Below are positions 8,504 to 45,048 of a stretch of DNA of 64,000 bases, piece by piece. The notes beneath the pieces were generated by a model, which did no database searches, was not told where the DNA came from, and saw nothing but the letters and a program-made list of their open reading frames with translations. The DNA comes from Candidatus Rifleibacteriota bacterium (GTDB lineage Bacteria > Muiribacteriota > Ozemobacteria > Ozemobacterales > Ozemobacteraceae), in contig JAAYVD010000040.1 of NCBI GenBank assembly GCA_012517355.1, forward strand, positions 1 through 64,000. The letters are read 5' to 3'. Position 1 is the first letter of the stretch. Each line of letters begins with the position of its first letter. The translations under genes and the position numbers were made by a program.

Positions 8504-8884
8504 CAGATTCCCAGACCCTTTCCGAACCCGCCCAGTCTGCCTTGCTTGATGGCGTAGACAGCCTGTTCTGTCCCGCCATCGCGGCCCGGAAAAAAGCCGG
8601 GCCCGCCCCAAATATACCCGAGAAACCGCCCAGGCCGGCGTCCCCACGGGTTGGGGTTTCCTGGATGACCCGGGACCCGAGGGCCGAGGATCCAGGAAGG
8701 TTCATGTCCAAGGCAGGGTGCAGGCAGAAAGCGGGCGAAGGTCCCATGATCGTGGGAGGACCCCTGGTCCATGGCAAAGGGCGCATCAGTGCAGATCCGG
8801 AAAGGGGCCAGGGACCCCTTGGGAAGGGTGGGCAAATCAAGTACAATGGGCATGCAACCTTCCCTTCCCAAAGGAGCACCTTCC

Positions 8885-9352
8885 ATGAAAGCCTGGAATC
8901 TCTGCCTCGCCGTCGGTCTGAGCCTTTTCCTTCTGTCCAGCATTGCCTTCGCAGATATCGATCAGATCTTGGGAAACTGGAAAAACACCGAACCCCTCAC
9001 CAGGGGGTTGCCCCTGGTCGAGATCGCCGCCAAAGGCCATATCCTGACCGTTCACGCTTGGGGCAAAGGCCATCCGGTCGATCTGGACTGGGGCACCGTC
9101 GAGGCCGTCGCCTACGCCGAAAAAGTGGAATCGCCTTTGCCGAAAGAGGCCATCGCGATTTCGGCGGTGTTCAAAACCTCGTATTCCGAAACGATCCTGA
9201 TCATCCGTCCGATCGAGGGAAATCAATTGAAAGTCGAAAACCTGACCCGCTTCACCGATGACAGCGGACGCTCGGCATTCCGGAAAGAATACACATTCAC
9301 CCGGACCGACGCGGAAAAGTCCAAGGCCAACGGAGGGGTGGAATCCAGGTGA
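8885..9352 (+). CDS. Secreted protein of unknown function
   Basis: MKAWNLCLAVGLSLFLLSSIAFA signal peptide, AAAGGAG SD upstream; TACAAT -10-like at 8842-8847. Confidence 0.8.
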   Translation: MKAWNLCLAVGLSLFLLSSIAFADIDQILGNWKNTEPLTRGLPLVEIAAKGHILTVHAWGKGHPVDLDWGTVEAVAYAEKVESPLPKEAIAISAVFKTSYSETILIIRPIEGNQLKVENLTRFTDDSGRSAFRKEYTFTRTDAEKSKANGGVESR

Positions 9353-11496
9353 CGGAAGGCCGGAAAACCTTCCTCCCCAGTTCGCCTGGGGAGAGGTGTG
9401 ATGACGTGAAATCAACCGAAGGTTCCCATCATTCCGACGGCGGGGGCCGAACAGCCAATCCCCACGATGTGGGGGTGGAAGACTTCGCCGAAGTTCTCCT
9501 TGCCGAGTTGTCGGCGGCATCCGCTGACCGGCGAAGGCTCGCCGCCGCCGGATTGAGCCGTTCGCTGGGGTTTTCCGTGGTCCAACAGGAACGGCTGGCC
9601 CTGCTGTTGCACGCCGAGACCGATCCCCAGGTCCGGGTGTTGATTCAGCAGGCCATTGAAAATGGCCGGCCTGCCGATGCGGGTGACGGGACCAACCCGC
9701 TGGATTGGGATCTCACCGTCCGGTTGGCGGTGGTGAAAAGTCTTCCGTGTCCGCTTGACCTCGGTCGGGACCAGGTAACGAAGAAGTGGTTCCTCGGCGA
9801 AACCGATGCGGGAGTGCTCGTCATCTTCCTTGGCAAACTGGTCTCGGTTGCCGATGCGGTCGTTGCCGATCGCCTGCAGGAACTCCTTCGGCGATCCGAT
9901 TGGCCCACCATCCAGGTGCGCGCCCTCCGTCTGCTCGCCGGCCACGATATCGACCGGGTCAGCGAACTCCTTGCCGGCTTCCTCGTTTCGGGGCATCCCT
10001 TGCTGAGGATCGAGACGGTTCGGGTTTTGGAACGGCATTTTCCTGCCGAGGCCGCCCGTTTCCTGCGAGAAGCCCTTCTCTCCTCAGATCCGGAAATGCG
10101 TTTTGCGGGATTGCAGGCAGCCTTTACCGTGGATTTCCGTGAGATCGCCCTCGCGGTCCAACATATTCTCCTGCAGGAAACCGATTCCGGCGTGCTTCGG
10201 CTGGCCGTCATTCTCGCCGTGAACAATCCGGATCCCGAGATCGCCTTGCGCCTCCACGCCAAGGCTCTTCGGGCGACAGGCGGACGATCGGCCGTCCTCC
10301 ACCAGATTTCCACCAAACTCTTTGAGGCGAGCAAACTGATCGGCCTGGTGGCTCGGGAAGTCACCCCTGACCTCTTTTTTCACCAGTCTCTGGCGTCTCC
10401 TGCCCCGACCCCGGTTGTGGCCGGCCCCTCAGCTTCGGGCGAAGACGCACCCAGGGTCGATGCTCCCGCGGAGGAGGTTCCTTTCGCCCCGGTTCCGCCA
10501 TCGGCTGCCGAACTCCTCGCTCAATTGAAGAGCCGGAATCCCCGGGAAGTGGCTGCCGCGGTGGATGCCCTCGGAAAAAGCGCACCGGAAGAGCTTCTGC
10601 CGCATCTCCAGTCGTTGTTGCGCCATGCCGATCCGAGAGTCCGTCTCAAGATGCAGGGAGTCCTCGAACGCATCGATCCGGGGGCTGTACAAAGCGTTCT
10701 GCAAAATCTTCTCCGGCAACCCACCGCCGCGGTCCGACAGCAGGGGGTGCGCCTGGGGTCCTTGATGGATCCGGTATCGGTGATGCCGTTCCTGCTCGAA
10801 GCGTATGACCGGGAAACGGACCCTGGACTGAAGCGTGACCTCGAATTGTTCTTCGTGAACAATCCATCCCCCAGTCTGCTGCGGCATCTCATCCAACGCC
10901 TGGCGGTTCGGGAGGAACGCGTGGTGAGGGCTCCCGAGGTGGTCGCCCAGGTCCATGCCGGCCTGAGCTCCCTGGCCGGAGGCGAAACCCCTCCACTGGC
11001 GGTCTTGCTCGAGGAGCATGCCCCCCATCCTGCACCGGTCCTGCCGACGATGACAAGGCTGGCCAAAGATCTCCGGCAGATCCATTTCGACCCGGATCGA
11101 CCGGGTTCCCGCGGCTGGAAAGGATTCTTCCAGGAATGGTGGGAAGCCCTTCGTCATCAGGAGGGTTTCCCGACGCGTTGGGCCATGGTGGCAGGAGTGG
11201 GACTGGTGACCCTCCTCGGGCTGGGGATCTCCCGGTCATGGACCCTGTCTGCACCCACCGTGGATCGGCAAACCACGGATACGGCAATACGCGAGGAGGT
11301 GATCCTCGATGGCCGGGTCGTCGCCGTGAGCCCGCAACAGGTTATTGTCAAGACATCCACGGGGATCTTCAGGATCGGTGGTGGCGATTTCGGCTCGGTG
11401 CAACCAGGCTGGGTGGGGAAGATCAAAGTCCGCCCGAACGGCTCCCCAACGAAGTCAAATCCGACCGACGGCCAGTTTGTGGCTTGGGAACGGTAG
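9349..11496 (+). CDS. HEAT-repeat protein with C-terminal TM segment
   Basis: Repeated alpha motifs (DPQVRVLIQQA, DPEMRFAGLQAAF, DPRVRLKMQGVLERID), C-terminal WAMVAGVGLVTLLGLGISR. GTG start overlaps the previous stop. Confidence 0.82.
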   Translation: MTEGRKTFLPSSPGERCDDVKSTEGSHHSDGGGRTANPHDVGVEDFAEVLLAELSAASADRRRLAAAGLSRSLGFSVVQQERLALLLHAETDPQVRVLIQQAIENGRPADAGDGTNPLDWDLTVRLAVVKSLPCPLDLGRDQVTKKWFLGETDAGVLVIFLGKLVSVADAVVADRLQELLRRSDWPTIQVRALRLLAGHDIDRVSELLAGFLVSGHPLLRIETVRVLERHFPAEAARFLREALLSSDPEMRFAGLQAAFTVDFREIALAVQHILLQETDSGVLRLAVILAVNNPDPEIALRLHAKALRATGGRSAVLHQISTKLFEASKLIGLVAREVTPDLFFHQSLASPAPTPVVAGPSASGEDAPRVDAPAEEVPFAPVPPSAAELLAQLKSRNPREVAAAVDALGKSAPEELLPHLQSLLRHADPRVRLKMQGVLERIDPGAVQSVLQNLLRQPTAAVRQQGVRLGSLMDPVSVMPFLLEAYDRETDPGLKRDLELFFVNNPSPSLLRHLIQRLAVREERVVRAPEVVAQVHAGLSSLAGGETPPLAVLLEEHAPHPAPVLPTMTRLAKDLRQIHFDPDRPGSRGWKGFFQEWWEALRHQEGFPTRWAMVAGVGLVTLLGLGISRSWTLSAPTVDRQTTDTAIREEVILDGRVVAVSPQQVIVKTSTGIFRIGGGDFGSVQPGWVGKIKVRPNGSPTKSNPTDGQFVAWER

Positions 11497-11513
11497 CAGG
11501 CTCAGGAGCAGGA

Positions 11514-12155
11514 TCAAGGGGGCGGCCGATACCATGAGCTCTGCAGCGCACGGATGAAACGCACCGGGAAAACCCGTGCCGGAAAGTCCTGCCTGATCGG
11601 GGGGGCTCCCTGGGCCCGGCGGTTGATCTCGAAACTCATCGTCACCTCGAACCAGGCGGAAAGCAGACGGGCCTCGCTGGCCAATCCCAAGGCGGGGTCG
11701 GTCGTTGCCTCGAGGCGCCGGATGATCGGGGTCCCGTCCACGGTCCACAGGGTCAGGCACGCGGCGTCGAAGCGGGTGACCAGGCCCCGACACAGGGTAC
11801 TCGTGATTCCATTCCGGGAGCGGATCACCCCCCGGGATTCCGTGGCAAGCCGGTAGGAAACGGGAACCAGGTTGCCGTTTTCCAGCGCGGTGAAGCCAAT
11901 CCCCCCCTGATCGGCGGTCATGGCCGATCGGATCTGCTGGGCGGGGGATCCGGTCCCCGTTCCCATGCAGTCTTCGAGATCATTCCGCAGGGCCGCCAGA
12001 AGGCGGGCGGCTTCGGCCGTGATCTGGCCATGTTCGTCGAGGGCGGTGGATTGTCGGAACGAATGGGTCAGCAGGCGGAAGACCACGAGGAGCAGAAGCG
12101 AAAAGACCAGGATGGTGACGATGGTCTCGACGAGGGTCCAGCCTCTCCGGTTCAC
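11514..12155 (-). CDS. Prepilin-type N-terminal methylation protein (PilW/GspJ-like pseudopilin)
   Basis: GTG at 12155 (GTGA overlap): VNRRGWTLVETIVTILVFSLLLLVVFRLLTHSFRQST. Confidence 0.85.
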   Translation of the reverse strand: MNRRGWTLVETIVTILVFSLLLLVVFRLLTHSFRQSTALDEHGQITAEAARLLAALRNDLEDCMGTGTGSPAQQIRSAMTADQGGIGFTALENGNLVPVSYRLATESRGVIRSRNGITSTLCRGLVTRFDAACLTLWTVDGTPIIRRLEATTDPALGLASEARLLSAWFEVTMSFEINRRAQGAPPIRQDFPARVFPVRFIRALQSSWYRPPP

Positions 12156-12586
12156 AGCCGCCACTCCGTGAAGGCCGTCAGCGTCACGTTGTGGACCGGG
12201 CCACTCCCCCAGAAGACTCTGACCGTCATCCATTTCAGGCTCGGGGATTCGGTGAGGAAGACGTCGAGCCGGGCCTCCATGTCCTTCGGGAGAGGCCTCG
12301 TGATCACGATCGAGTCGGGAAAAGCCGGCCACAAAGGGGTGATCGAGGCTATCCCTCCGAGGTTCAGATCCGTGCAGGGCTGAACCGCCTCGAACGGCAT
12401 GCTCTGCAACTGCTCGATCACTTCCTCCGCCCAACAGGTGGCCGCCAGCTCCTCCTGGGACAACCGCTGGGTCCGGGAGACCGTCGTCAGCACGTTGATG
12501 ACGGGGAGCAGGCCGATCCCGAGAATGGCCACGGCGACGATCACCTCCAGCAAGGTCGTGCCGCGAAAGCCGGGGGATCTCATCAC
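12152..12586 (-). CDS. Prepilin-type protein (PilV/GspI-like)
   Basis: MMRSPGFRGTTLLEVIVAVAILGIGLLPVINVLTTVSRTQRLSQEELAATCWAEEVIE. Confidence 0.87.
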   Translation of the reverse strand: MMRSPGFRGTTLLEVIVAVAILGIGLLPVINVLTTVSRTQRLSQEELAATCWAEEVIEQLQSMPFEAVQPCTDLNLGGIASITPLWPAFPDSIVITRPLPKDMEARLDVFLTESPSLKWMTVRVFWGSGPVHNVTLTAFTEWRL

Positions 12587-14754
12587 ATCTCCCGCTGCAC
12601 GACCAGGGTCCGGGTGATGTCAGAGAGATGCGCCCGGTACAGGTACTTCATACTGTCGGCGGTCGGATCGAAAGCGCTGTCGAACACCACCTGGCCCCCG
12701 GCGGGAAAGGCATTGGGGGCCAATCGCCCGACGGCCATCCCGCCTCTCAGGTCGATCGGGCGGGAAGGGTCCAGGGTCCGGACGGTGCCGTTCAGGGCAA
12801 CGAGATAGACATTCGCCCGGCCTCCCTGGGCCGGATCGAGTTCGACATCGCCATCGAGAACGACCACGGTGAGCATCTGATAAGGGTCCGGCCCCGGTTC
12901 GAGTCGACCGATGCGCACGTTGCCCTGCTCGACGATCAGGATCCCCCCCTTCCGGAGGATCCCGGGAGAGGGGAGAGCCAGTACCCCAGCGGACTCGCCG
13001 GGGACGACCACGGCCCCATCGAGTTCCAGGCTCCCATCGCTGCCCGAGGTGAAGAGCCGAAAGAACTCCTTCTGGTCGCGGACCCGATAGACCGCCTTGC
13101 CCAAGAGGAATTCCTTGGGGAGCTTTTCCAGGTCCCCGTTCTGGAAAAACGGGACGGAGCGCGCCAGCGAAGGATGGAACGACAGATCGCAGGTGCTCAC
13201 CGGCCCTCCGAAGAAGGACTGTTTGGCGCCGAAACCTCCCGGTTGGGAGAAGAAGAGGTTGTCGTAGGCCTGAAGATAGGGTTCGGTCTTCAGATGCGAA
13301 GACCATGTCCGGTATTCGTCCTGCGATGGGAAGATGTTCCCCGGGCGAAACCAATTCTCGTCCATGCGGATCTCGGTTCCAGGACGCAGATCCCCGGAAA
13401 CACAGGCCGTTGCGACGTTAGGGAACAGGGCCGGCACCGCCAGTCCGTCGTTCGACTGCGGAATGCAGCCCAATATGGCATCCCGGGTCGTGTTTCCCGT
13501 GCAGTCGACCACGACCCCGGCGTATTCCGCATAGCGGCGGTATACCTCGCCCAGCACAAGGGCTGGGGAAGGGTTGACCCGTGAGCCGAAGAGGTGGAGA
13601 ACCGAGGAACGCATCCGTGGGTCGCACCTCACCGGTGGTTTGGGGAAGGAAACCGACAGACGGTCCTGGAGGTTCATGTCCCCTCCATTCGCATCCGTGG
13701 TGTGGAATCCGGCCACGATGAAGTTCAGGATGAAGGCGAACGGGTTGGGCAGGTCCGCCCCATTGAGGCTCTGCGGATGCCGGTTGGCGGAAAACCCGGG
13801 TGGTGGGCTGAAGAAATCCGGTGGGTTTTTGGGGAAGTAGGACGGTTGCTTGGGAGGAGTGCCGAGCTGGAAGAAGGTGAAGTTCTCTCCGAACTCGTCA
13901 TGGTTCCCGGCCGTCACGTTCAGGGTGACCCGGCCGCCGCCGAGATAGAAATAGCCGCGTTCCCGGTAGCTCTCCGGCTGGTCTGGGTTCACCTGGCCGC
14001 GATCGAGGCCGCCTCCGGCCGAGAAGACCACCGGGAGCATCCAGGTATCGGGGCTTTCGCGATCATCGGGGAGACCATCCAAGGTGTTGGCAAAGAGATT
14101 GTAGGCATCCGGGTTCGGTTCCACCTGCCGGACGAACAGGGTGAACTTGCCCAGGACTCCCGGCACCAGGCTGAGGACGCGGAGTTCCCGTTCCTCATCG
14201 ATGACGGTGGTGCAACCACCGCAATCGCCTTCTGCCCGAAAGTGGAGCAGGAGGCTTCGCTCCACCTCGTCGGCCCCTCCGGTCGTCACCCCCAGAAGCT
14301 TGGGGGAAAGGGGTTCGAGGCGGGAAATCCAGACCGCCACCCGGGCGGCGGATCGGGGTGAGAGGCTGATCAGATCCTGAAGAGGCGCCTGGTCGATGGG
14401 AAGCGACGTTCCGGTGGCCAGGGAAGGGTTCTGCAGGGTGACGGCGATCCCGCTTTGCGGAAGCCTCATCTGATCGGTGATCTGGGCCACGGCGCAGGCG
14501 ATGGCGGACCGGGCAAGAAGGGATGACTGTCTCCGGTCGATGAGACTCCGCATCTGGCGGAGATTCTGCGCGGCAAACCAGTGGGAGGAGAAGACCATGA
14601 TGGTCACGATGACGAGGGCCGAAATGACCAGGAAAAGGGACATGCCTCGTCGATCCGAAGCACGATGAGGCCACCGCCCTCGAACGGCCCGGTGGCCGGA
14701 GAAGATTGCGAGGCCCATGTGTTCCATCCCTGCCAGTCGGTGAATTGGCCTCAT
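12583..14754 (-). CDS. Large PilX-like protein with N-terminal TM
   Basis: RRGMSLFLVISALVIVTIMVFSSHWFAAQNLRQMRSL...LLARSAIACAVAQITDQM. ATGA overlap with the 12586 gene; C-terminus similar in layout to 43059..45044. Confidence 0.82.
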   Translation of the reverse strand: MRPIHRLAGMEHMGLAIFSGHRAVRGRWPHRASDRRGMSLFLVISALVIVTIMVFSSHWFAAQNLRQMRSLIDRRQSSLLARSAIACAVAQITDQMRLPQSGIAVTLQNPSLATGTSLPIDQAPLQDLISLSPRSAARVAVWISRLEPLSPKLLGVTTGGADEVERSLLLHFRAEGDCGGCTTVIDEERELRVLSLVPGVLGKFTLFVRQVEPNPDAYNLFANTLDGLPDDRESPDTWMLPVVFSAGGGLDRGQVNPDQPESYRERGYFYLGGGRVTLNVTAGNHDEFGENFTFFQLGTPPKQPSYFPKNPPDFFSPPPGFSANRHPQSLNGADLPNPFAFILNFIVAGFHTTDANGGDMNLQDRLSVSFPKPPVRCDPRMRSSVLHLFGSRVNPSPALVLGEVYRRYAEYAGVVVDCTGNTTRDAILGCIPQSNDGLAVPALFPNVATACVSGDLRPGTEIRMDENWFRPGNIFPSQDEYRTWSSHLKTEPYLQAYDNLFFSQPGGFGAKQSFFGGPVSTCDLSFHPSLARSVPFFQNGDLEKLPKEFLLGKAVYRVRDQKEFFRLFTSGSDGSLELDGAVVVPGESAGVLALPSPGILRKGGILIVEQGNVRIGRLEPGPDPYQMLTVVVLDGDVELDPAQGGRANVYLVALNGTVRTLDPSRPIDLRGGMAVGRLAPNAFPAGGQVVFDSAFDPTADSMKYLYRAHLSDITRTLVVQREM

Positions 14755-14800
14755 GGTATCACTTCAGCCTGGGGTGGAAAACGCCTTGCGGCATCCTCGT

Positions 14801-17800
14801 CTACACCGTTGAAGGGCCGGCGCGTTTCACGATCAGCATCGTCACATCATCGCTCCAGGGGCATTCTCCCGTGTACTCCCGGACATCCTCCAGCACCCCA
14901 TGGATCACCTCATCCGGGGGGGCTTCAACACGTCGTTGCAAGGCCGATTCCAGGCGGTCGTACCCGAAGGGGGTGCCGGTCCGGTCGGTTGCTTCCGCGG
15001 AACCGTCAGAATACAGGATCAAGGTTTCGCCGCGCTCCAGGACCGTTTCGACAGTCCGGTAGGTGGGTTTGACCATGGCCCCGACTGGGAGGCTGACCTG
15101 ATTCAGATGTCTCAGAGTACCGCTGGGCCCGAAGATCGGGGGAAATGCCTGTCCCCCGTTGGCAAATCTCAGCACGCCGGTCTCGAGATCGACGTGCCCG
15201 ATGAACAGGGTCATGATGCGCTTGCGGGCCAGCCAACCGAACATCAGACCATTCAGATACGCGAGGAAATCGGCCGGGGTTCGGTCCTGGTGAGGGAACG
15301 CCAGGACGGCCGATCTCACCATCGCCACGACGATGGCGGCGGGCAATCCATGGCCGGAAACATCGCCGAGGGCGATCAACCAACGCCCGGGAGCAATCGA
15401 CAGGAGATCGAAGTAATCGCCGCCGACCAGATTGAGCATCCGCGATTGCCCCAAGGCGGTGAACTCCCTCTCGACGAGCGGCTTGCACGGGAGAAAGGAG
15501 TCCTGCACCACCTTGGCGATGTTCAACGCCCGCAGATGCTCGAGGGTCAACCTGAACAGCCGTTCGAGACGCCGGAACTCCTCGATCCGGGAAGGGAGGG
15601 TCATGGGTCGGAAATCGCCACGCTGCATGGCCTGGACCGTCCTCTGCACGGTCTCGAGGGGCCTCACCAACTGGCTCTGGAACATCAGGAGAATGCCCAA
15701 AAGGAGGGTCACGATCGAAAGGCCGCCCAGAAGGTAGGTCACCTTTCCTGATGAAAAACGACCGATGATCCTGGCCGTCGGTTGGATGGCAACGAAGGTG
15801 ATCTGGGGCAGGATCGAGTTGCGACGGGCTCCGATGAGGTATTCTTGTCGATCGGCGGGATCCTTCATCACCCCCTGGACCATTCTCCCGAGGGGTGATG
15901 AGGTCGGCAGATGAGTGGCGAGGAGCCTCTGAAGGCGGTCGTTCTTCCCGCCGGTTTTCATGAAAGCCGGGGTGAGATACACGAACTGCCCGGTCCGGGC
16001 GCCCCGGCGCCGTTCCCACACCAGTCGGCGGAACTGTTCGAACAGGGTGAGACCGGAAAAGCGCAGACTGACCATGGCGTGGGCAATCCCGCGATCGTCA
16101 CGGATGAGATCGAGAAACTGGAACCCGACGTCATCGGGAAGGAGGATCCGGGTGAAACGCCCTTTGTTGGCAGAGAGGAGGTTGATCACTCCCGTCGGGT
16201 CCTGGGTCCCTCCCCCCGCGATGGCGGCCATGATGACTTCATTCATGTTCCCAACGGCGGTCTCGGGAACATCGAGACCTGCCTTCCTGTTTTCGAAGGC
16301 GCAGACCCGGCGGCCGAAAAACTGCAGGAAATGCTGATGCCGGCCTTCCAGGAGAGTGCGGGCGCCAAGAACCCACTCGCGCCAGTTCCGACCGGCCTCG
16401 AAGGGGTGAAAGGAAGGAGAGGCCAGGATCTCCAGCTCCACGGACGTGTTGATGCCGGCCCCAAACCAGGCATCCATCACCCGACGCCGTCGGGAGGTGG
16501 GGAAGGTCAGCACCCGGGTGAGCGGGAACCGTGTCTTGCTGCAGGCGGGGAGCAAAAGTTGGCCTTGCGAGCCGACGATCTCGAAGGAACCGGGTTCGAG
16601 GCGGAGGAGGATCTGCCGTTTGATCCACTCCAGGTTCGTTGGCGGATACCTGGGGATGGCACGGTGAAGCAGGCGGCGGATGCTCCTTTCCCGGGCGAGG
16701 ATGAAGCGCGAGAACTCCCGCATCATCCGGTCATGGTCCTCGACCATGGCCTGGCAACTGCGCGAGATCCCTGAATACTCGTGGATCGAGGCGAGGGATC
16801 GGCCCAGGGTTCCGAACAACAGAGCCCCACAGCCTCCGCTGGCCAGCAGGACGAGGGCGAGCTTGTCCCGCACCGGCAGGGTGGATCCGCGACAATGGAT
16901 GAACCACCACCCCAGCAGCACCAGGGAGGCGGCGGTGACCAGGCTGATGACAAACACGGTGGTTGCCGCCATGGGAGGGTTCCCTTCGGTCCACCCGAAG
17001 AGGAGTCCCCATTCGCGATCGGCCAGGGCCACCGTCACCGTGTCCTGGCCAACGGAAATGGAATCTGTCCCCCTCCCCGAAATCTGGCGAAGCACCTTTG
17101 ACGGGAAACGATCCGCGGAAGTCAGAACTTTCCCGTTTTGCACGATCCCCACCTGGATCCCCATCCGTCGAGCCGCCGCCAGGGCCTGCCGCGCCAGGGT
17201 CGCACGCTCCACGCCCTGGCGATGCACCCTCACAAAGGCGAAGCACCCGGAGGCGATCGGGCTGGGAAGGGGGGACCACAGCAGCCAGGAATTCATCGGA
17301 AAATCAGAGACATGAACCGGTTGATGGGGTTGCCAGAGACCGGGATGGTCGAGGGGCAGGACCAGCAGGCTGCCGTCGGGAAACCGATACCGGCGGCTAC
17401 GCAGTCGGATCGACCAATTGGAGCCGAAAAGAGGGGGATCCAGGTCATTGGCCCATTGCCGGAAGAAAGCCCTTTGCAGCGGCCATCTCTTTTCGGCCAG
17501 GTGGTGGGCCCAGAGAATCGCGGCCAGTTTCTCCATCGGGGGAATCGAAGCCGCGGTCATGGAGACCGGGATGAAGTCCCGGGGGCGACAGAGGTCGATG
17601 CTCACGGCGTTTGCTCCCAGGATTTCCGTGAGGCCGGCCTTGGTCTCGGCCAACCACCTTGCCGGAGTGGGAGCCGAGGAGGCCTGCTTGCGAACCTTTT
17701 GCCAAGCCCGGGTGAGAATCCACTCCGGTTCCAGCATCCGTTGGAACCGTTGGATATCCAGAGACAACCGCCAGTGATGTCGGGACCCTTCCGCCTCCGA

Positions 17801-17941
17801 GCTGACCAGTTCGGAGAGTTGCAGACTCCGGCTGCCGAGCCACGCCAGAGCCGAGGAAAGAATGACCAGGATGATGACCTGGCCCTGCCAACCGAAACCC
17901 CCTTTTGTCCGGGAATCAGTCATGTCCCGCATCCCTGGCAC
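14801..17941 (-). CDS. Membrane SpoIIE-family PP2C phosphatase with HAMP region (catalytic motifs intact)
   Basis: VGGDYFDLLS...LIALGDVSGHGLPAAI...LYSDGSAEATDRTG...PWSDDVTMLIVKR. Confidence 0.9.
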   Translation of the reverse strand: MPGMRDMTDSRTKGGFGWQGQVIILVILSSALAWLGSRSLQLSELVSSEAEGSRHHWRLSLDIQRFQRMLEPEWILTRAWQKVRKQASSAPTPARWLAETKAGLTEILGANAVSIDLCRPRDFIPVSMTAASIPPMEKLAAILWAHHLAEKRWPLQRAFFRQWANDLDPPLFGSNWSIRLRSRRYRFPDGSLLVLPLDHPGLWQPHQPVHVSDFPMNSWLLWSPLPSPIASGCFAFVRVHRQGVERATLARQALAAARRMGIQVGIVQNGKVLTSADRFPSKVLRQISGRGTDSISVGQDTVTVALADREWGLLFGWTEGNPPMAATTVFVISLVTAASLVLLGWWFIHCRGSTLPVRDKLALVLLASGGCGALLFGTLGRSLASIHEYSGISRSCQAMVEDHDRMMREFSRFILARERSIRRLLHRAIPRYPPTNLEWIKRQILLRLEPGSFEIVGSQGQLLLPACSKTRFPLTRVLTFPTSRRRRVMDAWFGAGINTSVELEILASPSFHPFEAGRNWREWVLGARTLLEGRHQHFLQFFGRRVCAFENRKAGLDVPETAVGNMNEVIMAAIAGGGTQDPTGVINLLSANKGRFTRILLPDDVGFQFLDLIRDDRGIAHAMVSLRFSGLTLFEQFRRLVWERRRGARTGQFVYLTPAFMKTGGKNDRLQRLLATHLPTSSPLGRMVQGVMKDPADRQEYLIGARRNSILPQITFVAIQPTARIIGRFSSGKVTYLLGGLSIVTLLLGILLMFQSQLVRPLETVQRTVQAMQRGDFRPMTLPSRIEEFRRLERLFRLTLEHLRALNIAKVVQDSFLPCKPLVEREFTALGQSRMLNLVGGDYFDLLSIAPGRWLIALGDVSGHGLPAAIVVAMVRSAVLAFPHQDRTPADFLAYLNGLMFGWLARKRIMTLFIGHVDLETGVLRFANGGQAFPPIFGPSGTLRHLNQVSLPVGAMVKPTYRTVETVLERGETLILYSDGSAEATDRTGTPFGYDRLESALQRRVEAPPDEVIHGVLEDVREYTGECPWSDDVTMLIVKRAGPSTV

Positions 17942-20759
17942 GGATCAGGAACGCCTGGATACCACCCTCCGAGCACATCCGCAGGATTCCCCCGTCACCA
18001 GGACCGGCATCGGGATTCTTCCGGCGAAGAGCGGCGGCCCAGGGTTCCGGATGGGGCTCTTCGTCACTCAGGACAAACACGGTTTCTCTCGCCAGAGCGG
18101 CCGTTGTGAGCTCCAACCCATCGGAAGGGGAGGTCTGGCCTCCAATGGCCGGCCGGATCTCCGGGAGGGGGGCCAGGGCATCTTCCGGTCCGGCCAGGGG
18201 CCTCGGATGGGCGAAATTCACGAAACGCAGGCTTCCCGAAAGGGGCTCGAAGAGGCCGATGAACAGGGCTACACGACCTTCGGCGGGGGAGGCCCCGATC
18301 TTGTTGCCCGTGAGACGGCACCAGTGCTGTTCGATCAGGGTCCGGAGCGGGACCGTCGGCGGATCACCTTCGCCATTGAGCTCGAGATGCGACCGGACGG
18401 CCGTTTTCATCGCGGCGGCCAGCAGAACCCCCTGCCAGCCTTGCAGACCAACGGATCCCATGAAAAAGACATAGGTCTTTCCCCGCTGGAATCCATCGAA
18501 GAATCCGCCTTCCCGCTTCAGGCTTTCCGCTCCAAACCAGGAGCCCATCCAATGCTCGTCGGCCAGGGGCCGGTGGGCAAACAAGGCCGTTTTGATCGAA
18601 ATCGCCGACTGCAGATCGTGAAGGTTTTCGGCGGTGAGCTCGAGACCCTTGGCCAGGCGGTGGAACTCGTCCTGCCCCTCCACTTCGAGATGAAACACGA
18701 AATTCCCCGCTTCGATGGCTTGCATGCCCTGTTCCAAAGAGCGAAACCGGAGGATGAACCAGCGGGCGACGCCGCCGGCCCCGAAGACGGCAAGCATCGC
18801 CAGGATCAGGGTCGCCGGGCCAATCCAGCCCAGATGATCCATCACCTCCCTTCGGAGATCGTCGTAGGGGACCAACCCGATGAGGAGGCACCCCGGCAGG
18901 CTTTTCCCCGCGCAGCCGGCGGCCAACCACCACTTGCCGCGGATCTGGAAGAACTGCTGGATCGAGGCTTGCCTGGCCGCCAACCGGTGGATGAACCCCT
19001 TGAGCGAGGGGGTTGGAAGTCGTGGGCCATGCTCGATTCGCAATTCCCCCAGCGATGACTGGCTGACCATCAGCACCATGCCTTCCCCAGGATGCCGTCG
19101 GTTGCGGAACCAGGAAGTCAGGAAGCGGTGGAGAACCGCCTTCCGATTGAAGGCGAGGATGCCCCCATGACTCGACTCCCAGCGCTCCGGATGGACCACG
19201 TCACGGAAGAGGATGGTTCCCGTCTCGCCGAGAACCGAGCGGGAAAACATCTGGCCGAGGAACATGGCCACGTTTTCCACCGTCCGTTGCCGAGGCAGGA
19301 AGTCCGGTTGGGAGTATGGTCCGACCAACCCTTTCGACTCCGGAAAGCGGACTCCGGACGCGCTCGGCTGGGCTTGAGCCAGGGCCTCCATGAAACAGCG
19401 GTGGGCCAGCTCGAGCGCGGCACGTTGGTTTTCCGGCCAGATGTGGTCTGGATCCAGGACCAGCCGGGTCTGACCGAAGCGATCGAACAGCAACATCGCC
19501 TGCCCGCCGACCGCCCGCAACGGCGGGAGAAGAAGGTCGGGGTGCGACAGGGCGGCCGCATCCGGAGGGGTCCCGGCCAGGAGACGACGGGAATGGAACT
19601 CGATCCGGCGCGTGAACTGGAGCCAACCGGCATCCACCGCGGCGAGCCGGTCATGGATCATCGTGGCGGTCCGGAGGACCGCGTGCTGCCAGAAAAAGGG
19701 GCGGATGACCAGGACCGACCCGGCGACCAGGAGGAGGCCGAGCAGGAAAAACCCGTAGACCGACGATCTCAGGAATGACCCCACCGTGATCGACCATCCC
19801 GTGCGCAGAGTGGCCAACACCCCGCCGAGGGGGCGGAGCAGGGCCAGGATGAGGATCGACAGGAAGGCGATCCCGAAGGGGTGGGCGATCAAACCCGGCA
19901 AGGGTTCTTCCGGCTTCGGGGCCCAGGCAACGACCATCGAATCGCCGGGGGCTCCGGCCGCAATTCCGAGATGGGTCGCATCGGCCCACTGCAGGGATTC
20001 GGGGTGAGAGAGGCGGATTGAGGCGAGGGTGGATGGAACGGAAGCCGGGTCGGCCTCACCCGGCTCGGAACCAGGGCCATCCAGGAGGGCGAGACGGCAG
20101 TTCCATCGGGTTTCGAGGATCGCCAGTCCCCTGGTCACGTCGGCTCCCCCCTGCCGAGTCGTCGCCGGCTGCCTGGCGATCAGGACCATCAGGACGTGCG
20201 GGCCGGCGGGAAGGGGGCACATGTCCCACCAGGCGTAGGCAAACCGGGAATCCGGCGGGAGCTCCCGAAGGGTTCCCCGTGCCGTGGCAAGGGTGTCCAT
20301 CGCCCCGGGGCAGGAAAACACCCGGTCGGCGAAGTTCCCGGCGGCGGTGGGAGGTTTCAGGTGCTGTGCCTGGGCAAAAAAGGCCCGATACACCCGTCGT
20401 TGAACCACCGTTCCCGAGCCTCCCTGCCGCTCGGGGAACAAGGAAACCCCCTCGCCCGAGAAACAGTGGATCTCCGCTCGGCCGCGCTCGGCCTTTTCGA
20501 GCTGCAGGAGACTCTGCACGGCTCCGCGACGCCGGATCCGTCGGAACCGGTCGACGATCTGCCCGGCCCGGATTTCCGGGCGGATCAACCGGATGGCTTG
20601 GAACACCGCCGTTTCGAGTTCCGCATACCGGTCCTCGGACCCCACGACCGGACGGGATGGTACTGCGGCGATCCTCGCCAGAACCGAGGCAAGGAAGATC
20701 GTCAGCAGCAGAGCCAGGCACTCCGCGCGATACTCGTCCCAGAATCGGACCTGGGTCAC
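17916..20759 (-). CDS. Membrane protein with HAMP-like region and degenerate SpoIIE-like domain
   Basis: Same layout as 14801..17941, but motifs read EGGFFDGF / MGSVGLQGWQG / LSDEEPHPE / CSEGGIQAFLI. ORFs overlap by 26 nt. Confidence 0.82.
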   Translation of the reverse strand: MTQVRFWDEYRAECLALLLTIFLASVLARIAAVPSRPVVGSEDRYAELETAVFQAIRLIRPEIRAGQIVDRFRRIRRRGAVQSLLQLEKAERGRAEIHCFSGEGVSLFPERQGGSGTVVQRRVYRAFFAQAQHLKPPTAAGNFADRVFSCPGAMDTLATARGTLRELPPDSRFAYAWWDMCPLPAGPHVLMVLIARQPATTRQGGADVTRGLAILETRWNCRLALLDGPGSEPGEADPASVPSTLASIRLSHPESLQWADATHLGIAAGAPGDSMVVAWAPKPEEPLPGLIAHPFGIAFLSILILALLRPLGGVLATLRTGWSITVGSFLRSSVYGFFLLGLLLVAGSVLVIRPFFWQHAVLRTATMIHDRLAAVDAGWLQFTRRIEFHSRRLLAGTPPDAAALSHPDLLLPPLRAVGGQAMLLFDRFGQTRLVLDPDHIWPENQRAALELAHRCFMEALAQAQPSASGVRFPESKGLVGPYSQPDFLPRQRTVENVAMFLGQMFSRSVLGETGTILFRDVVHPERWESSHGGILAFNRKAVLHRFLTSWFRNRRHPGEGMVLMVSQSSLGELRIEHGPRLPTPSLKGFIHRLAARQASIQQFFQIRGKWWLAAGCAGKSLPGCLLIGLVPYDDLRREVMDHLGWIGPATLILAMLAVFGAGGVARWFILRFRSLEQGMQAIEAGNFVFHLEVEGQDEFHRLAKGLELTAENLHDLQSAISIKTALFAHRPLADEHWMGSWFGAESLKREGGFFDGFQRGKTYVFFMGSVGLQGWQGVLLAAAMKTAVRSHLELNGEGDPPTVPLRTLIEQHWCRLTGNKIGASPAEGRVALFIGLFEPLSGSLRFVNFAHPRPLAGPEDALAPLPEIRPAIGGQTSPSDGLELTTAALARETVFVLSDEEPHPEPWAAALRRKNPDAGPGDGGILRMCSEGGIQAFLIRARDAGHD

Positions 20760-21313
20760 AAGGCATCAATCACGGTTGCCGGACTGCTGGCAGGCTCGGG
20801 TCGAAGGGGGCCCGCTCCGCGGCGGGCGCGGATCCGCTCGAAAATCTGGCGAACGGCTTCCCGCAACGTCCCGTCGATCCGGTCGAAGGGGGCCATGAAT
20901 TCGGTTCGCGAGCGACGAATCCGGGCCCGGAGGTCAGACAGACGGCCCTGAAGAAAGGGGGTGGGTCGTCGCCGTTCGAGATCCTCGAGATCACGCTCGA
21001 GTTGTTCGAACTGGCAGTGGGCCGCGGCCAGGTCATCCCGCAGGGACTGGGGAGCAAGGGGTTCGCCCCGCTGTTGTCGGAACTGGGCCCGTCGGGCGGT
21101 TTCGGCCAGGCTGGCTTCGATCAGGTCCAGCCGCTGTTGGATCAGCCGAAGCTGCAGGGCGTTGACGGCCTCGGCCGATTCCTGCGCGGCCCAACCGGTC
21201 GGGGCCAGCAACAACGCCCCCAGGGCAAGAATGACCGCCGTCGGAAAGGGAGGCGACCCCCAGGGGCGGGTGTCACCCCCCTTCCGACGGCTCACATCAG
21301 GCCTGGGCAACAT
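20756..21313 (-). CDS. Secreted/anchored coiled-coil protein
   Basis: TAVILALGALLLAPTGWAAQ signal-like sequence, then helical LQLRLIQQRLDLIEASLAETARR. ATGA overlap with 20759. Confidence 0.75.
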   Translation of the reverse strand: MLPRPDVSRRKGGDTRPWGSPPFPTAVILALGALLLAPTGWAAQESAEAVNALQLRLIQQRLDLIEASLAETARRAQFRQQRGEPLAPQSLRDDLAAAHCQFEQLERDLEDLERRRPTPFLQGRLSDLRARIRRSRTEFMAPFDRIDGTLREAVRQIFERIRARRGAGPLRPEPASSPATVIDAL

Positions 21314-21321
21314 TGACAGGA

Positions 21322-22176
21322 TCAGAGATTCCCGTCGACGGAGGAAGTGGTTCCAGGATTGTCGCTTTCCACGGCATCGGTGGTCGTTTCATCGGAGTCG
21401 AACATGTTCCCGCCGTTCTGGTGGACGACGTTGCCGTCGGCATCGATGGCATAATATCCCCACTCGCCCGTCTTGGGATTGAAATACGCCGCCGCGGTGG
21501 TCTTCTGTCCATCCGCCGTTTTCACTTCATGGTAATCCACATAGGTGCCGTTCGGGTCCTTGCCCTTGAAGGTGTAATTCTGGGTCCCATCGCGGGTCTG
21601 GGTGCAGTTCTGAACCCCCTTGTACCCGTTGATGTCGATCGCGCTCTTGCCGTTGGTGCGGGTCGTCCCGTCGGGAAAGGTGATCTGCTTGTACGTGCCG
21701 TAGCCCTTGCCGCCGTCCTCGCCGGTAAAGGCCCCATGTCCCCGGACGATCTTGGTCGTACTGCCCGTCTGGTTCGTCATGGTCGTCGTATTCCAGGCGG
21801 AGTGCGTATTCGGATCCCGGTTTCCCGAATGGGTGACGGTGGACCCGCTGGCGGTTTTCACCCAACCGGCGTGGGAGGAAGTCCCATCAGGGTTTTTCAC
21901 CACACCACCCTGGCCGGTCGTTCCTTTCGGCCCGGCGAAACCACCCGCGGCGGCTTTGGTGCCGCTGGCGGTGGTTCCGCCCGCCGCCCAACCGGCGCCG
22001 CCGAGGGGGCCGGAACCGGTGGCGAGAACGGCCTTGCCGCCTTTGGGCCCAGTGACCTCCGTTACCGAAACCTCGCCTCCCTTTTTGCCGTGGTGGACCT
22101 TGGTGGTCTGGCCAAAGGACGGGACGAGACCGGACAGGACGAACACCCCGAGCATGGAAACGGTAATGATGCGCAT
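21322..22176 (-). CDS. Secreted Gly/Thr-rich protein of unknown function
   Basis: ATG at 22176: MRIITVSMLGVFVLSGLVPSFGQTTKVHHGKKGGEVSVTEVTGPKGG... Confidence 0.8.
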   Translation of the reverse strand: MRIITVSMLGVFVLSGLVPSFGQTTKVHHGKKGGEVSVTEVTGPKGGKAVLATGSGPLGGAGWAAGGTTASGTKAAAGGFAGPKGTTGQGGVVKNPDGTSSHAGWVKTASGSTVTHSGNRDPNTHSAWNTTTMTNQTGSTTKIVRGHGAFTGEDGGKGYGTYKQITFPDGTTRTNGKSAIDINGYKGVQNCTQTRDGTQNYTFKGKDPNGTYVDYHEVKTADGQKTTAAAYFNPKTGEWGYYAIDADGNVVHQNGGNMFDSDETTTDAVESDNPGTTSSVDGNL

Positions 22177-22309
22177 GACTTCCTCCTGAGTTTCAAATGG
22201 TTCCCTGCGGAAACCACGGCAAGTATACACCGGGGATGTCCGCACCCTGGGTTTTTTTCCTGGCGCGTGGTATCCTTGCCCTCAGCCGCATCAAATGGGG
22301 AGTGGAACG

Positions 22310-22657
22310 ATGGCCGACGTGAGAATCGAGGAGTTTCCCCAGGTCGCTGCGATTTTGCATCCGGCCGGCTATCTGGCCGCCGACCTTGGCGCCCGCCTGG
22401 TGGGAGAAACCAAGCGCCTGCTGGCTGAAGGGTGCCCTCTGGTCATTCTTTCCCTCGAGGAATGCCCCTTGATCAATTCCCTCGGCATGGCGCGACTCAT
22501 CGAGATTCTCGAAGTGGCGGCCGAGGCCGGTCGGATGGTCTGGTTCGCCGATCTTTCCAAACTCCACCAGCAGACCTTGGCGGGCGCCGGAGTGTTGCCG
22601 ATCATTCCCAAGGTGACCACCGTGGCTGAGGCCAAACGGGCCTTGGGCCTTCCCTGA
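22310..22657 (+). CDS. STAS-domain (anti-sigma-factor-antagonist-like) protein
   Basis: MADVRIEEFPQVAAILHPAGYLAADLGARLVGETKRLL...VILSLEECPLINSLGMARLIEIL, a SpoIIAA-like pattern around the Ser. Confidence 0.82.
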   Translation: MADVRIEEFPQVAAILHPAGYLAADLGARLVGETKRLLAEGCPLVILSLEECPLINSLGMARLIEILEVAAEAGRMVWFADLSKLHQQTLAGAGVLPIIPKVTTVAEAKRALGLP

Positions 22658-34799: not shown

Positions 34800-37700
34800 T
34801 CAAAGTCGGGAGCTCTCCTCTCTCTCGAGTATGAGGACGGTGAAGTCGTCGGGCAGTGGCTCTCCGGAGCGGACGAAGGGGTGGTGGTCGAGGATGTCGC
34901 AGCAGGCGGCGGGGGCGGGCAGGGGTGGGCGGGTGCCGAACCAGGCGCCGAGGGTCTGGAACCCGTCATCGCCATCGATGCTGAGCGATTCGGCGAGGCC
35001 GTCGGTGTAGAAGATCAGCCGTTCGCCTGGTTCCAGCCGCAGGGTCAGGGGCGTGACCCGCACGTCCGGCCGGATGCCGAGCAGTCGGCCCCCCGTGGAT
35101 ACCAGCTCGGGAGGGCGGCCGGGCGACTGGCGGAAGGGGAAGGGGTGGCCGCAGTTGAACAGGGTGAGATCGCGGGTGGCGAGGTCCACCTCGACCACGC
35201 AGGCGGTCATGAGCAGGGGGTGGCTGAAGTGGTCGGGGGTGATGGCGCGCAGCACGCGGTTCAGGGCGGTGACCAGCTCGAGGGGCGGGCGCCCGGCGGC
35301 GGCATGTTCGGCGAACAGACCCTTGGCGATCGCCATGCCCAGGGCGGCAGGGACCCCGTGGCCGGTCACATCGCCGATCACGATCAGCAGCCGGTCTTCC
35401 CCGCACGGCTGGAAGTCGAAATAGTCGCCTCCCAGCTGGGATGCGGGAAGAGACCGTCCGGCCACCCGGAATCCACGCGCCGACAAGGGCTCCTTTGGCA
35501 GGAGGCGGGCCTGCACCTCGCGGCCCATCGAGACCTCCTCCAGGTTGGCGGTCATCACGTTGAACAGGGCGGTCAGATCGCCCAGTTCGTCGGGGTCGGG
35601 CAGAGGAACCCGGTGGGTGAGCCGGCCTCCTTGCACGGCGGCGACGCCCGTGGCGAGCGCCTCGACGGGGGCGAGGAACTTGCGCGCCAGCAGGGTCCCG
35701 AAGAACCCGGCGAGGCCGCAGACCAGCGCCCCGAACCCCAACAGGCGCTGTCGCAGGCCGGCGATCTCGGCCTGGATGCCGGTCAGGGGCTTGACCGCCA
35801 CCAGCAGGAACTGGTCCAGCAGCCGGGCCGGGAAGGCGGTGACCACGCAGGGCTGTCCCTTGTAGGTGATCAGATCGTGGGCCAGCCGCTGCTTCATCAA
35901 AAAGACCCGGAAGAAGGCGCGGAAATCGCGCCCCAGGGGGCGTCGCGGCCAGGACGGGTAGACCTGCCGGACGCTGGCCAGCGGCCGCGTCGGGTGCCGG
36001 ACCACCTCCCAGTTGGGATACCGGCGGATCCACATCAGCTCGGTGCCGTCGTCGAGCGGCTGGGCGGGGACCGACCGGCGCAGGTGGCGGCGCACCAGGT
36101 CTCCCCGGTCCCAGAGGGCGGTGAACAGGTAGTCGGCCTCCCCGTCCCGGTTGCGCAGGACGCGGAAATAGAAGGAACCCTTCAGGTTGGCCAGCTCGAG
36201 GGGGATCATGACCGATTCGTTGCCTTCCAGCCCCTCCATGAAGCCGGCCCGTTCCTCGGGGGGAAGGAAGCCCAGCATCAGGTCGGTCTCCAGCAGGAGC
36301 CGGCTGCTGCCCAGGGTTTCGTCGTGGGTGATCGACCGCCACAGCGACAGGCTCAGGGCGGCGAACCCTTTCTGGCCCAGTTCCAGGGGGTTGCGGACGA
36401 TCGGCAGCGGCACCTCGCGCCCGTCGGAGGCCAGCAGGCGGGCCTCCTCGACCTTGGCCCCGTTCAGGAAGGGGACCAGGCGGTCGACCATGGCCAAAAG
36501 ATCGCGGGGCCGGGCCGGGGTGGTGGCGGGGATCTGGCGCTGGAGGTCGACCTCCCAGCGGCGGGTCACCAACGGGAACTTGAGGTCGATCTCGTTCAGC
36601 AGCAGGGCGTTGTGCTGCATGGCGGTCTGCACGAGCAGGTCCTCCCGTTCCCCCAGCCAGGCGTCGATGACGAAGATCAGCAGAGTGAGCGGGCCGGCGG
36701 TCGAGCCCAGGAACAGGGCCAGCAGCTTCCAGCGGATCGACAGCCAGGGCAGGCGGGGGCGGGCCAGGATCCAGCAGAGGCCGAGACAGGCGGCCAGCAG
36801 CCCGGCGGCGGCGGCGGCGCGGAACCGGAACACCAGGAGGGAGGGGTCCTCGGGGTCGGGCGCGCCTGCGGAGGGTCGGAAGGCGAAGGAGCCGGGGGAA
36901 GAGGCATTGGTGGCGGTCCGACCAACATTCCCAGGAGGAGCGGCATCGGGCTTTCCGGCGGCCCAGTGCGTGCCCGATGGGGTGGCGTGGGGGGTGCCCG
37001 GGCCGAAGGGAAGGGAGGCCACCAGGCGGAAGCGCGTGTTGATCATGGCCACCGACCACAGGCGGCCGGCGGCCCGGAATTCCTTGCGGGGCTCGTTCTC
37101 GTAGCGCACCGCCATCTCGGCGACCTGCGGGGGCGCGGCCGTGGCGTCGGGGCCGAGGACCCGCACCCCGACCATGTCGACGACGTCGATCCGGATGCCG
37201 CGGCGGGCGGCGTGGCCGGCCAGGGTGTCGAGGGCCATCAGGGGCGAGAAGCCGGCCTTGTGGACGTTGGCGAAGACGGCGAAGCGTGGGTCGAAATGCT
37301 GGAAGAGCCAGGTCTTGTGCGGGCCCAGGGAGGTTTCGATCCAGCCCGACCCGATCTGTTCGAGGCGCGGGCGGGCGCGGGAAGTCAGGCCGAGGAAGCG
37401 GGCGACGATCGGCAGCCGGTCGTCGAACGGCAGGTAGCCATGGCGGTAGTAGTGTCGCAGCATCTCCCAGAATTCCCGGGCGGCCCGTCGCGATTCGAGG
37501 CCGCCGAACTGGGCGCGCACCACGCCCTGGCCGTCGAGGAGGGTGAAGGTGAACAGGCTGGGGAACCGCCGCCAGAGCTGCCCGAGGCGCGCCTTCAGGT
37601 AGGGCAGCGGGCGCGGCCGGCGGGCGGCGCGGCGGGCCAGGGTGGTCAGGCTGCGCTTGAGCAGGTGCTCGGGGTCGGTGTTGGGCAGGACCAGCGACAG

Positions 37701-37883
37701 TTCACGGTCGAGGCGGGCGAAGGCGCGCCGTTCGGCGGCGGCCTCGCGGATCCCGGCCAGGTACCGGAGGGCGGCGTCCGCCAGCAGGCAGGGGATCACG
37801 CCCAGGAACAGCAGGACGAGCAGGGCGGGACCGGCGACGCGGGTGAAACCCCTTTCCTGCCCCTCTTCGGTCACCGCTCCCAT
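34800..37883 (-). CDS. Membrane SpoIIE-family PP2C phosphatase with HAMP region
   Basis: GGDYFDFQ...LLIVIGDVTGHGVPAALGM...LIFYTDGLAESLS. True start MGAVTEEGQERGF (37883) or 37892; the ORF upstream of this is antisense to the HEAT gene. Confidence 0.9.
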   Translation of the reverse strand: MGAVTEEGQERGFTRVAGPALLVLLFLGVIPCLLADAALRYLAGIREAAAERRAFARLDRELSLVLPNTDPEHLLKRSLTTLARRAARRPRPLPYLKARLGQLWRRFPSLFTFTLLDGQGVVRAQFGGLESRRAAREFWEMLRHYYRHGYLPFDDRLPIVARFLGLTSRARPRLEQIGSGWIETSLGPHKTWLFQHFDPRFAVFANVHKAGFSPLMALDTLAGHAARRGIRIDVVDMVGVRVLGPDATAAPPQVAEMAVRYENEPRKEFRAAGRLWSVAMINTRFRLVASLPFGPGTPHATPSGTHWAAGKPDAAPPGNVGRTATNASSPGSFAFRPSAGAPDPEDPSLLVFRFRAAAAAGLLAACLGLCWILARPRLPWLSIRWKLLALFLGSTAGPLTLLIFVIDAWLGEREDLLVQTAMQHNALLLNEIDLKFPLVTRRWEVDLQRQIPATTPARPRDLLAMVDRLVPFLNGAKVEEARLLASDGREVPLPIVRNPLELGQKGFAALSLSLWRSITHDETLGSSRLLLETDLMLGFLPPEERAGFMEGLEGNESVMIPLELANLKGSFYFRVLRNRDGEADYLFTALWDRGDLVRRHLRRSVPAQPLDDGTELMWIRRYPNWEVVRHPTRPLASVRQVYPSWPRRPLGRDFRAFFRVFLMKQRLAHDLITYKGQPCVVTAFPARLLDQFLLVAVKPLTGIQAEIAGLRQRLLGFGALVCGLAGFFGTLLARKFLAPVEALATGVAAVQGGRLTHRVPLPDPDELGDLTALFNVMTANLEEVSMGREVQARLLPKEPLSARGFRVAGRSLPASQLGGDYFDFQPCGEDRLLIVIGDVTGHGVPAALGMAIAKGLFAEHAAAGRPPLELVTALNRVLRAITPDHFSHPLLMTACVVEVDLATRDLTLFNCGHPFPFRQSPGRPPELVSTGGRLLGIRPDVRVTPLTLRLEPGERLIFYTDGLAESLSIDGDDGFQTLGAWFGTRPPLPAPAACCDILDHHPFVRSGEPLPDDFTVLILEREESSRL

Positions 37884-37890
37884 GCGGGCC

Positions 37891-37896
37891 ATTATA
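37891..37896 (-). promoter_or_regulatory. Consensus -10 TATAAT, 7 nt from ATG 37883
   Basis: GTGTATAATGGCCCGCATGGGAGCGG on the minus strand; no SD. Confidence 0.5.
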
Positions 37897-38208
37897 CACA
37901 ACGGGGCCGGTGCCAACATCAGGATGGCGACCCGCCCGCCGGGCCGCGTCGCCGAAGAAGAGGACGACGCCTGGCCCGGGAAGAGCCGGAGCCACACTCC
38001 CCTCACCTGGTGGCCTGATACGGGAATGTCCCATCGGCCAGGTTTTTCCTGCAGCGGGTGGCCAATCCATCCGCCCGGAACAAATGGGGGTGGACCTCCA
38101 GGCACGAAGCCGGCAAACACGGAACCGGGTGGGGCGGTTTCCCTTGGTGTCGATGAATGGTCACGCGACCAGGGGTTGGTGGTATCATGGGCCGGGGATG
38201 AACCGCAC

Positions 38209-40947: not shown

Positions 40948-40958
40948 AGGAGGATCCC

Positions 40959-41354: not shown

Positions 41355-41386
41355 AAGAAAAACCATGATCCGCATTAAGGCTTGCC

Positions 41387-45044: not shown

Positions 45045-45048
45045 CGCG

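What the first reader, a model, noticed from the sequence alone, without database searches (positions are those of the whole stretch)
11514..21313. SpoIIE phosphatase pair and a pseudopilin trio in one coupled operon
Six minus-strand genes are packed head to tail: coiled-coil secreted protein, dead SpoIIE-like, active SpoIIE-like, PilX-like, PilV-like, PilW-like. Several junctions overlap (ATGA/GTGA, 26 nt between the two phosphatases). Seen: ORF overlaps, pilin N-termini, PP2C motifs. Known: SpoIIE phosphatases act on STAS-domain antagonists in partner switching. Inference: assembly or expression of a pseudopilus is gated by phosphatase-controlled partner switching. No pilus ATPase or prepilin peptidase is in the window.
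Basis: partly seen in the sequence, partly recalled or inferred. Interest (0 to 1): 0.72.

Follow-up and report, generated by a model that had tools for sequence, protein, structure and literature searches.

The report
Pseudopilus genes tied to phosphatase switch
An uncultured Riflebacteria bacterium carries a gene block that joins a membrane phosphatase, its catalytically dead twin, a STAS switch protein and a HEAT-repeat protein to three pilus-tip-like proteins; similar blocks recur across related genera, so the link is probably functional, though how it works is unproven.

Summary
In detail: seven minus-strand genes (22176-11514) run head to tail: Gly-rich secreted, coiled-coil secreted, dead SpoIIE, active SpoIIE, and a GspK/PilX-, PilV- and PilW-like trio. 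The unit is larger. A HEAT-repeat gene (9349-11496) and a STAS gene (22310-22657) flank it on the other strand, and all of it forms one low-GC3 island (about 8.8-22.7 kb).

By itself the operon proves little: in this genome (about 76 SpoIIE, at least 150 pilin-like proteins) SpoIIE-pilin proximity is at chance level. Relatives decide it. Of 40 HEAT-family loci in four related genomes, 20 have SpoIIE within 7 kb (expected at most 5.8), 21 have PilV/PilW genes (at most 10) and 12 have both (about 1.5). Fully colinear operons exist. A second, canonical copy lies in the window at 34.8-46.3 kb. The genome has 22 tandem SpoIIE pairs; the first member lost catalytic residues in 10, the second in none.

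Best reading: a lineage-specific partner-switching variant in which a receptor phosphatase, often with a pseudophosphatase partner, acts on the linked STAS protein to control a pseudopilus tip complex. The substrate, the kinase and the output are inferred. New variant of a known kind.

The parts
11514..12155 (-). PilW/GspJ-like minor pseudopilin (213 aa)
   Evidence: TIGR01711 gspJ E=0.0019 over the N-terminus; N_methyl hit in own genome at 21.6 bits
12152..12586 (-). PilV/GspI-like minor pseudopilin (144 aa)
   Evidence: PF07963 over cut-off; TIGR02523 PilV E=7e-8, below its cut-off
12583..14754 (-). Large PilX/GspK-like protein (723 aa; likely start nearer 14643), no Glu at +5
   Evidence: GspK model E=0.0017; 42% orthologs in three Riflebacteria; AF2 shows a long N-terminal helix but overall pLDDT is 51
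14801..17941 (-). Active transmembrane SpoIIE phosphatase (4 TM, weak HAMP, PP2C)
   Evidence: PF07228 E=4e-41; intact motifs; TM scan, a fifth weak peak lies inside the PP2C domain
17916..20759 (-). SpoIIE-like pseudophosphatase (4 TM, HAMP, degenerate PP2C)
   Evidence: HAMP 8.5e-8; all four metal Asp lost; PP2C fold by AF2/Foldseek, RssB 3eq2 E=3e-9
20756..21313 (-). Secreted coiled-coil protein (185 aa)
   Evidence: one N-terminal hydrophobic segment; only weak coiled-coil hits
21322..22176 (-). Gly/Thr-rich secreted protein (284 aa), first gene of the run
   Evidence: N-terminal hydrophobic segment; 8 nt from the next gene; no family
22310..22657 (+). STAS protein, candidate phosphatase substrate; Ser in INSLG at the SpoIIAA Ser58 place
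   Evidence: PF01740 E=0.002; alignment of about 60 homologs, Ser kept in nearly all
9349..11496 (+). HEAT-repeat protein (715 aa), convergent with PilW
   Evidence: PF13646 E=9e-13; profile A2 family
8771..9352 (+). Small secreted protein ORF overlapping the HEAT start; low-GC3 edge of the island
   Evidence: ORF; GC3 0.71 versus 0.90 in the next gene out
34800..37919 (-). Module 2: active SpoIIE
38209..40947 (+). Module 2: HEAT-repeat protein
   Evidence: PF13646 E=2e-8
40959..41354 (+). Module 2: STAS protein (INSPG motif)
   Evidence: PF01740 E=3e-4
41814..42467 (+). Module 2: ECF sigma factor
   Evidence: PF04542 E=7e-16
42457..43062 (+). Module 2: anti-sigma-like protein with HxxxCxxC and a hydrophobic segment
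   Evidence: ORF sequence; equivalent gene in L137 hits zf-HC2 below cut-off
43068..46304 (+). Module 2: PilX-, PilV-, PilW-like pseudopilin trio

Best explanation
The locus is a Riflebacteria receptor-phosphatase module that controls a minor-pseudopilin (tip) complex. A membrane SpoIIE phosphatase, here probably paired with its pseudophosphatase twin through HAMP/PP2C dimer contacts, senses an outside signal through its large extracytoplasmic parts. When active it removes a phosphate from the Ser of the linked STAS protein. The STAS protein, together with the HEAT-repeat protein as scaffold or effector, then passes the signal on. In the canonical version it would act on the co-encoded ECF sigma/anti-sigma pair and so set expression of the PilX-V-W trio; in the window's module 1, which lacks its own sigma pair, it would act through a sigma factor elsewhere or directly on assembly. 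Shown: gene content, intact versus lost active sites, predicted PP2C fold of the dead copy, conserved STAS Ser, conserved co-occurrence and gene order, one compositional island. Inferred: heterodimer, STAS as substrate, role of HEAT, direction of control, the kinase.
For: HEAT-profile loci in four relatives (profile seeded only from this genome): 20/40 with SpoIIE within 7 kb, 21/40 with PilV/W, 12/40 with both, against upper-bound expectations of 5.8, 10.0 and 1.5 (p 1e-7, 2e-4, 1e-8); 27/40 with STAS. Colinear operons L168, L176, L163, and the divergent form in L137, L158, L169 and window module 2. In L163 and L176 the first SpoIIE of the pair is also degenerate. STAS-SpoIIE proximity in this genome 13 vs 3.2 expected (p=1e-5). 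The window STAS groups with the STAS of loci C61 and C84 (support 0.954), both near SpoIIE pairs whose first member is degenerate or lost its GHG His. The nearest paralog of each window SpoIIE is the matching member of the C84 pair, full length, with STAS as next gene. HEAT, operon and STAS share low GC3 (0.69-0.88) between flanks at 0.83-0.92.
Against: No RsbW/SpoIIAB-type kinase (PF13581) lies near the HEAT-STAS loci, so the classic kinase of a partner switch is missing locally. Module 1 has no sigma/anti-sigma pair. HEAT and STAS are on the opposite strand from the operon in the window. Plain SpoIIE-pilin adjacency in this genome is no more than chance. No orthologs of the exact SpoIIE pair were found. 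PilX membership rests on weak scores. No expression or biochemical data. Some of the 40 loci are orthologous to each other, so the p-values overstate independence.
Confidence: 0.55

Rival explanations
1. The SpoIIE/STAS/HEAT genes sense or regulate something else, and the pseudopilin trio is a separate cargo that the same loci tend to host because both families are hugely expanded in these genomes.
For: About 76 SpoIIE and at least 150 pilin-like genes in one genome; SpoIIE-pilin proximity at chance level; the closest PilX orthologs sit with ECF sigma/FecR genes, mostly without SpoIIE.
Against: HEAT-anchored loci in relatives have SpoIIE and pilins together far above upper-bound expectation, and colinear operons with several short junctions recur.
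Confidence: 0.25
2. The output is post-translational: dephosphorylated STAS, or STAS with HEAT, binds the inner-membrane pilus machinery and licenses assembly, with no sigma factor involved, as proposed for STAS-only outputs such as HmpV of Nostoc.
For: Module 1 has no sigma/anti-sigma pair; the Hmp partner-switching system of Nostoc punctiforme, needed for hormogonium development and motility, appears to use its STAS protein HmpV as output on an undefined effector (PMC6495340).
Against: Canonical loci carry an ECF sigma and an anti-sigma-like gene directly before pilX.
Confidence: 0.15
3. The dead SpoIIE is a decaying duplicate with no role (compatible with the rest of the module being functional).
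For: It has lost all four metal Asp and has no ortholog in the family.
Against: Full-length open frame with translational overlap; 10 of 22 pairs degenerate, always the first member (sign test p=0.002); the same asymmetry in L163 and L176; PP2C fold retained in the model.
Confidence: 0.1

Closest known systems
SpoIIE-SpoIIAA-SpoIIAB and RsbU-RsbV-RsbW partner switches
   Same: PP2C/SpoIIE phosphatase plus small STAS protein with the phospho-Ser position kept, linked (in the canonical loci) to sigma/anti-sigma genes
   Different: No HATPase kinase/anti-sigma in the locus; HEAT protein added; ECF sigma with zinc-finger-type anti-sigma; tandem phosphatase pairs with a dead first member; pseudopilins as neighbours
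SiaABCD of Pseudomonas aeruginosa
   Same: Membrane HAMP-PP2C phosphatase; SiaA is the best NCBIfam match of the active copy
   Different: No SiaB, SiaC or SiaD was seen among the neighbours; far below the SiaA cut-off (52 of 700 bits)
HmpUVW partner switch of Nostoc punctiforme
   Same: Partner switch with a STAS protein (HmpV) as output, required for hormogonium development and motility, a stage that depends on type IV pili (PMC6495340)
   Different: Hmp acts on hormogonium development; here the pseudopilins are encoded in the same locus with HEAT and ECF genes
Type II secretion GspI-GspJ-GspK tip complex and type IV minor pilins PilV/W/X
   Same: Three adjacent prepilin-like genes, one large and lacking Glu5 as in GspK
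   Different: Large member is about 690 aa; no major pilin, ATPase or secretin genes beside it
RssB (PP2C-type receiver protein)
   Same: Best structural match of the dead domain (3eq2); E. coli RssB is, from general knowledge, a non-catalytic PP2C-like protein
   Different: RssB is a soluble response regulator; the window protein is a four-TM HAMP receptor in tandem with an active copy
ComZ of Thermus thermophilus
   Same: Very large minor pilin; top but non-significant Foldseek hit of PilX (E=0.11)
   Different: No sequence match; model confidence too low to claim homology

Membership tests
Partner-switching system (SpoIIE/RsbU type) | PP2C phosphatase with intact metal-binding Asp | tested here: met
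   active copy keeps all motifs
Partner-switching system (SpoIIE/RsbU type) | STAS antagonist with phosphorylatable Ser | tested here: met
   Ser in INSLG/INSPG motif; phosphorylation itself not testable
Partner-switching system (SpoIIE/RsbU type) | HATPase_c anti-sigma kinase in the locus | tested here: not met
   PF13581 hits exist in the genome but none near HEAT-STAS loci
Partner-switching system (SpoIIE/RsbU type) | Sigma factor target | tested here: inconclusive
   ECF sigma/anti-sigma in module 2 and canonical loci, absent from module 1
Partner-switching system (SpoIIE/RsbU type) | Phosphatase acts on the linked STAS protein | not testable with these tools
   needs biochemistry
SiaABCD | SiaA above curated cut-off, with SiaB/SiaC/SiaD | tested here: not met
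   52 bits vs cut-off 700; no such neighbours recognised
GspIJK / PilVWX minor pseudopilin trio | Prepilin N-terminal motif in the small members | tested here: met
   PF07963/TIGR02532; PilW is borderline
GspIJK / PilVWX minor pseudopilin trio | GspK-type large member above its family cut-off | tested here: not met
   NF037980 18 vs 130 bits; Foldseek not significant
GspIJK / PilVWX minor pseudopilin trio | Assembly ATPase, platform protein and prepilin peptidase | not tested
   none recognised in the window; genome not searched for them
SpoIIE-type pseudophosphatase | PP2C fold with metal-binding Asp lost | tested here: met

The most novel reading that the evidence does not exclude
Riflebacteria run dozens of heterodimeric receptor phosphatases, many of them an active SpoIIE with a pseudophosphatase partner that carries signal sensing or substrate docking, and one branch uses a STAS-HEAT adaptor in place of the classic kinase/anti-sigma to control a pseudopilus. 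This would be a signalling architecture not described in the papers searched.
Probability: 0.25. Interest if true: 0.78.

Novelty: new variant of a known kind. Interest (0 to 1): 0.62.

Why it matters
Partner switches are known mainly from sporulation, stress response and some biofilm and motility systems. This is a conserved, lineage-wide gene set that joins one to pseudopilins, with a recurring phosphatase/pseudophosphatase tandem and a HEAT-STAS pair, in a barely studied phylum. It gives clear, testable substrates and partners, and suggests how these bacteria keep dozens of near-parallel phosphatase pathways apart.

Tried and rejected
SpoIIE-pilin proximity across the own genome as evidence for the link: not enriched, rejected as support. 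HEAT-anchored enrichment inside the own genome: significant but biased, because the HEAT profile was seeded from loci chosen near SpoIIE/pilins; replaced by the test in other genomes. Homology between the coiled-coil protein and the 179-aa secreted protein upstream of the C84 pair: none detectable, only the same position. PilX against PDB sequences and folds: nothing significant. Paper searches for SpoIIE with pseudophosphatase, partner switching with pseudopilin, and HEAT + STAS + sigma + pilus: nothing relevant. First region requests failed on a length error.

Full report
Observation. The six genes listed are real and in the stated order on the minus strand, and a seventh secreted gene lies 8 nt upstream. 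Exact junctions: 4 nt overlap coiled-coil/dead, 26 nt dead/active, a 46 nt gap active/PilX, 4 nt PilX/PilV and 4 nt PilV/PilW, so co-transcription is plausible but not shown. The promoter/terminator scan gives nothing beyond shuffles. The active phosphatase has every SpoIIE motif. The upstream copy has lost all four metal-binding Asp yet models as a PP2C domain, best matches RssB, SpoIIE and SiaA (mean pLDDT 70). Both have four membrane segments, two large extracytoplasmic parts (inferred from the spacing) and a HAMP-like region, weak in the active copy.

Source. Named relatives holding PilX orthologs are 'Candidatus Riflebacteria' MAGs. The window genome is 7.1 Mb with about 76 SpoIIE matches and at least 150 prepilin-type N-termini. 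For comparison Streptomyces coelicolor has 46 SpoIIE-like phosphatases (PMC2887360). Eight relatives have 25-61 SpoIIE.

First test, own genome. SpoIIE clusters lie within 4 kb of pilins 5 times, expected 5.5. The bare operon is therefore no argument. STAS genes do lie near SpoIIE (13 vs 3.2 expected within 8 kb, p=1e-5).

The larger unit. HEAT (9349-11496) and STAS (22310-22657) flank the operon. GC3 and codon scores step sharply at both ends: genes up to 8503 have GC3 of about 0.90, genes between about 8.8 and 22.66 kb have 0.69-0.88, and genes from 22957 on have 0.83-0.90; the two SpoIIE genes have the lowest GC3 of the 65 long SpoIIE genes examined in the genome. The simplest reading is one horizontally gained unit; the nearest PilX orthologs are in lower-GC relatives. 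The HEAT gene is most like that of locus C61 (34%), and the STAS gene groups with C61 and C84. Both loci carry SpoIIE pairs with an altered first member: C61 has lost all four Asp, C84 has GEG in place of GHG. In C84 the STAS gene directly follows the pair, and that pair is the best full-length paralog of the window pair.

Decisive test, relatives. A HEAT profile built only from the own genome was run on eight relatives; 40 loci from four of them could be read. SpoIIE lies within 7 kb in 20, PilV/W in 21, both in 12, STAS in 27. Upper-bound expectations are 5.8, 10.0 and 1.5. L168 and L176 are colinear, SpoIIE-SpoIIE-HEAT-STAS-ECF sigma-PilX-PilV-PilW; L163 differs only by STAS before HEAT; and L137, L158, L169 and window module 2 have the SpoIIE divergent. 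ECF and anti-sigma identities were checked by Pfam; the anti-sigma call rests on a sub-threshold zf-HC2 match and the HxxxCxxC motif. In L163 and L176 the first SpoIIE is degenerate as well. Some loci are orthologous, so p-values are optimistic.

Tandem pairs. 22 same-strand pairs occur in the genome; 10 first members and no second members lost at least one metal Asp (sign test p=0.002). A pseudophosphatase partner acting in a heterodimer is the natural inference, since SpoIIE has a dimeric structure, RsbU is modelled as a dimer, and both are controlled by a switch helix at the base of the PP2C domain (PMC11418112). It is not shown.

Mechanism. The STAS proteins keep a Ser in [IV]NSPG/NSLG at the SpoIIAA Ser58 place. 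The active SpoIIE is the obvious phosphatase. The kinase is open: no RsbW-type gene is near. In canonical loci the ECF/anti-sigma pair directly before pilX makes expression control the likeliest output. Module 1 lacks it, so there the output may be a distant sigma factor or assembly itself; the STAS protein HmpV of Nostoc is a precedent for a STAS output with an undefined target (PMC6495340).

Verdict. Real, conserved beyond chance as a gene set, and not found described in the papers searched. A new variant of partner switching.

Noticed in passing
window 34800-46304: Canonical second copy: SpoIIE divergent from HEAT-STAS-ECF sigma-anti-sigma-PilX-PilV-PilW.
   Followed up: yes
own genome, 22 tandem pairs (L005-L048, window): SpoIIE genes occur as head-to-tail pairs, mostly with 4 nt overlap; only the first member is ever degenerate.
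   Followed up: partly
window about 8771-22657: Sharp low-GC3, low-coding-score island that includes HEAT, the operon and STAS; looks horizontally gained as a unit.
   Followed up: partly
G000:C22:91678-95308 (L014): SpoIIE fused to a HATPase_c_2 kinase domain with a STAS gene directly after it, a one-protein kinase/phosphatase switch.
   Followed up: no
G012:C10:77-102 kb and G017:C7:10-48 kb: Arrays of five or more SpoIIE genes within 25-40 kb in relatives.
   Followed up: no
L081, L082, L083, L084, L088: Closest PilX-V-W orthologs are adjacent to ECF sigma and (checked in L081, L082) FecR-domain genes.
   Followed up: partly
L006:8284-15393: C84 operon: 179-aa secreted protein, SpoIIE with GEG for GHG, active SpoIIE, STAS; same layout as the window without pilins.
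   Followed up: partly
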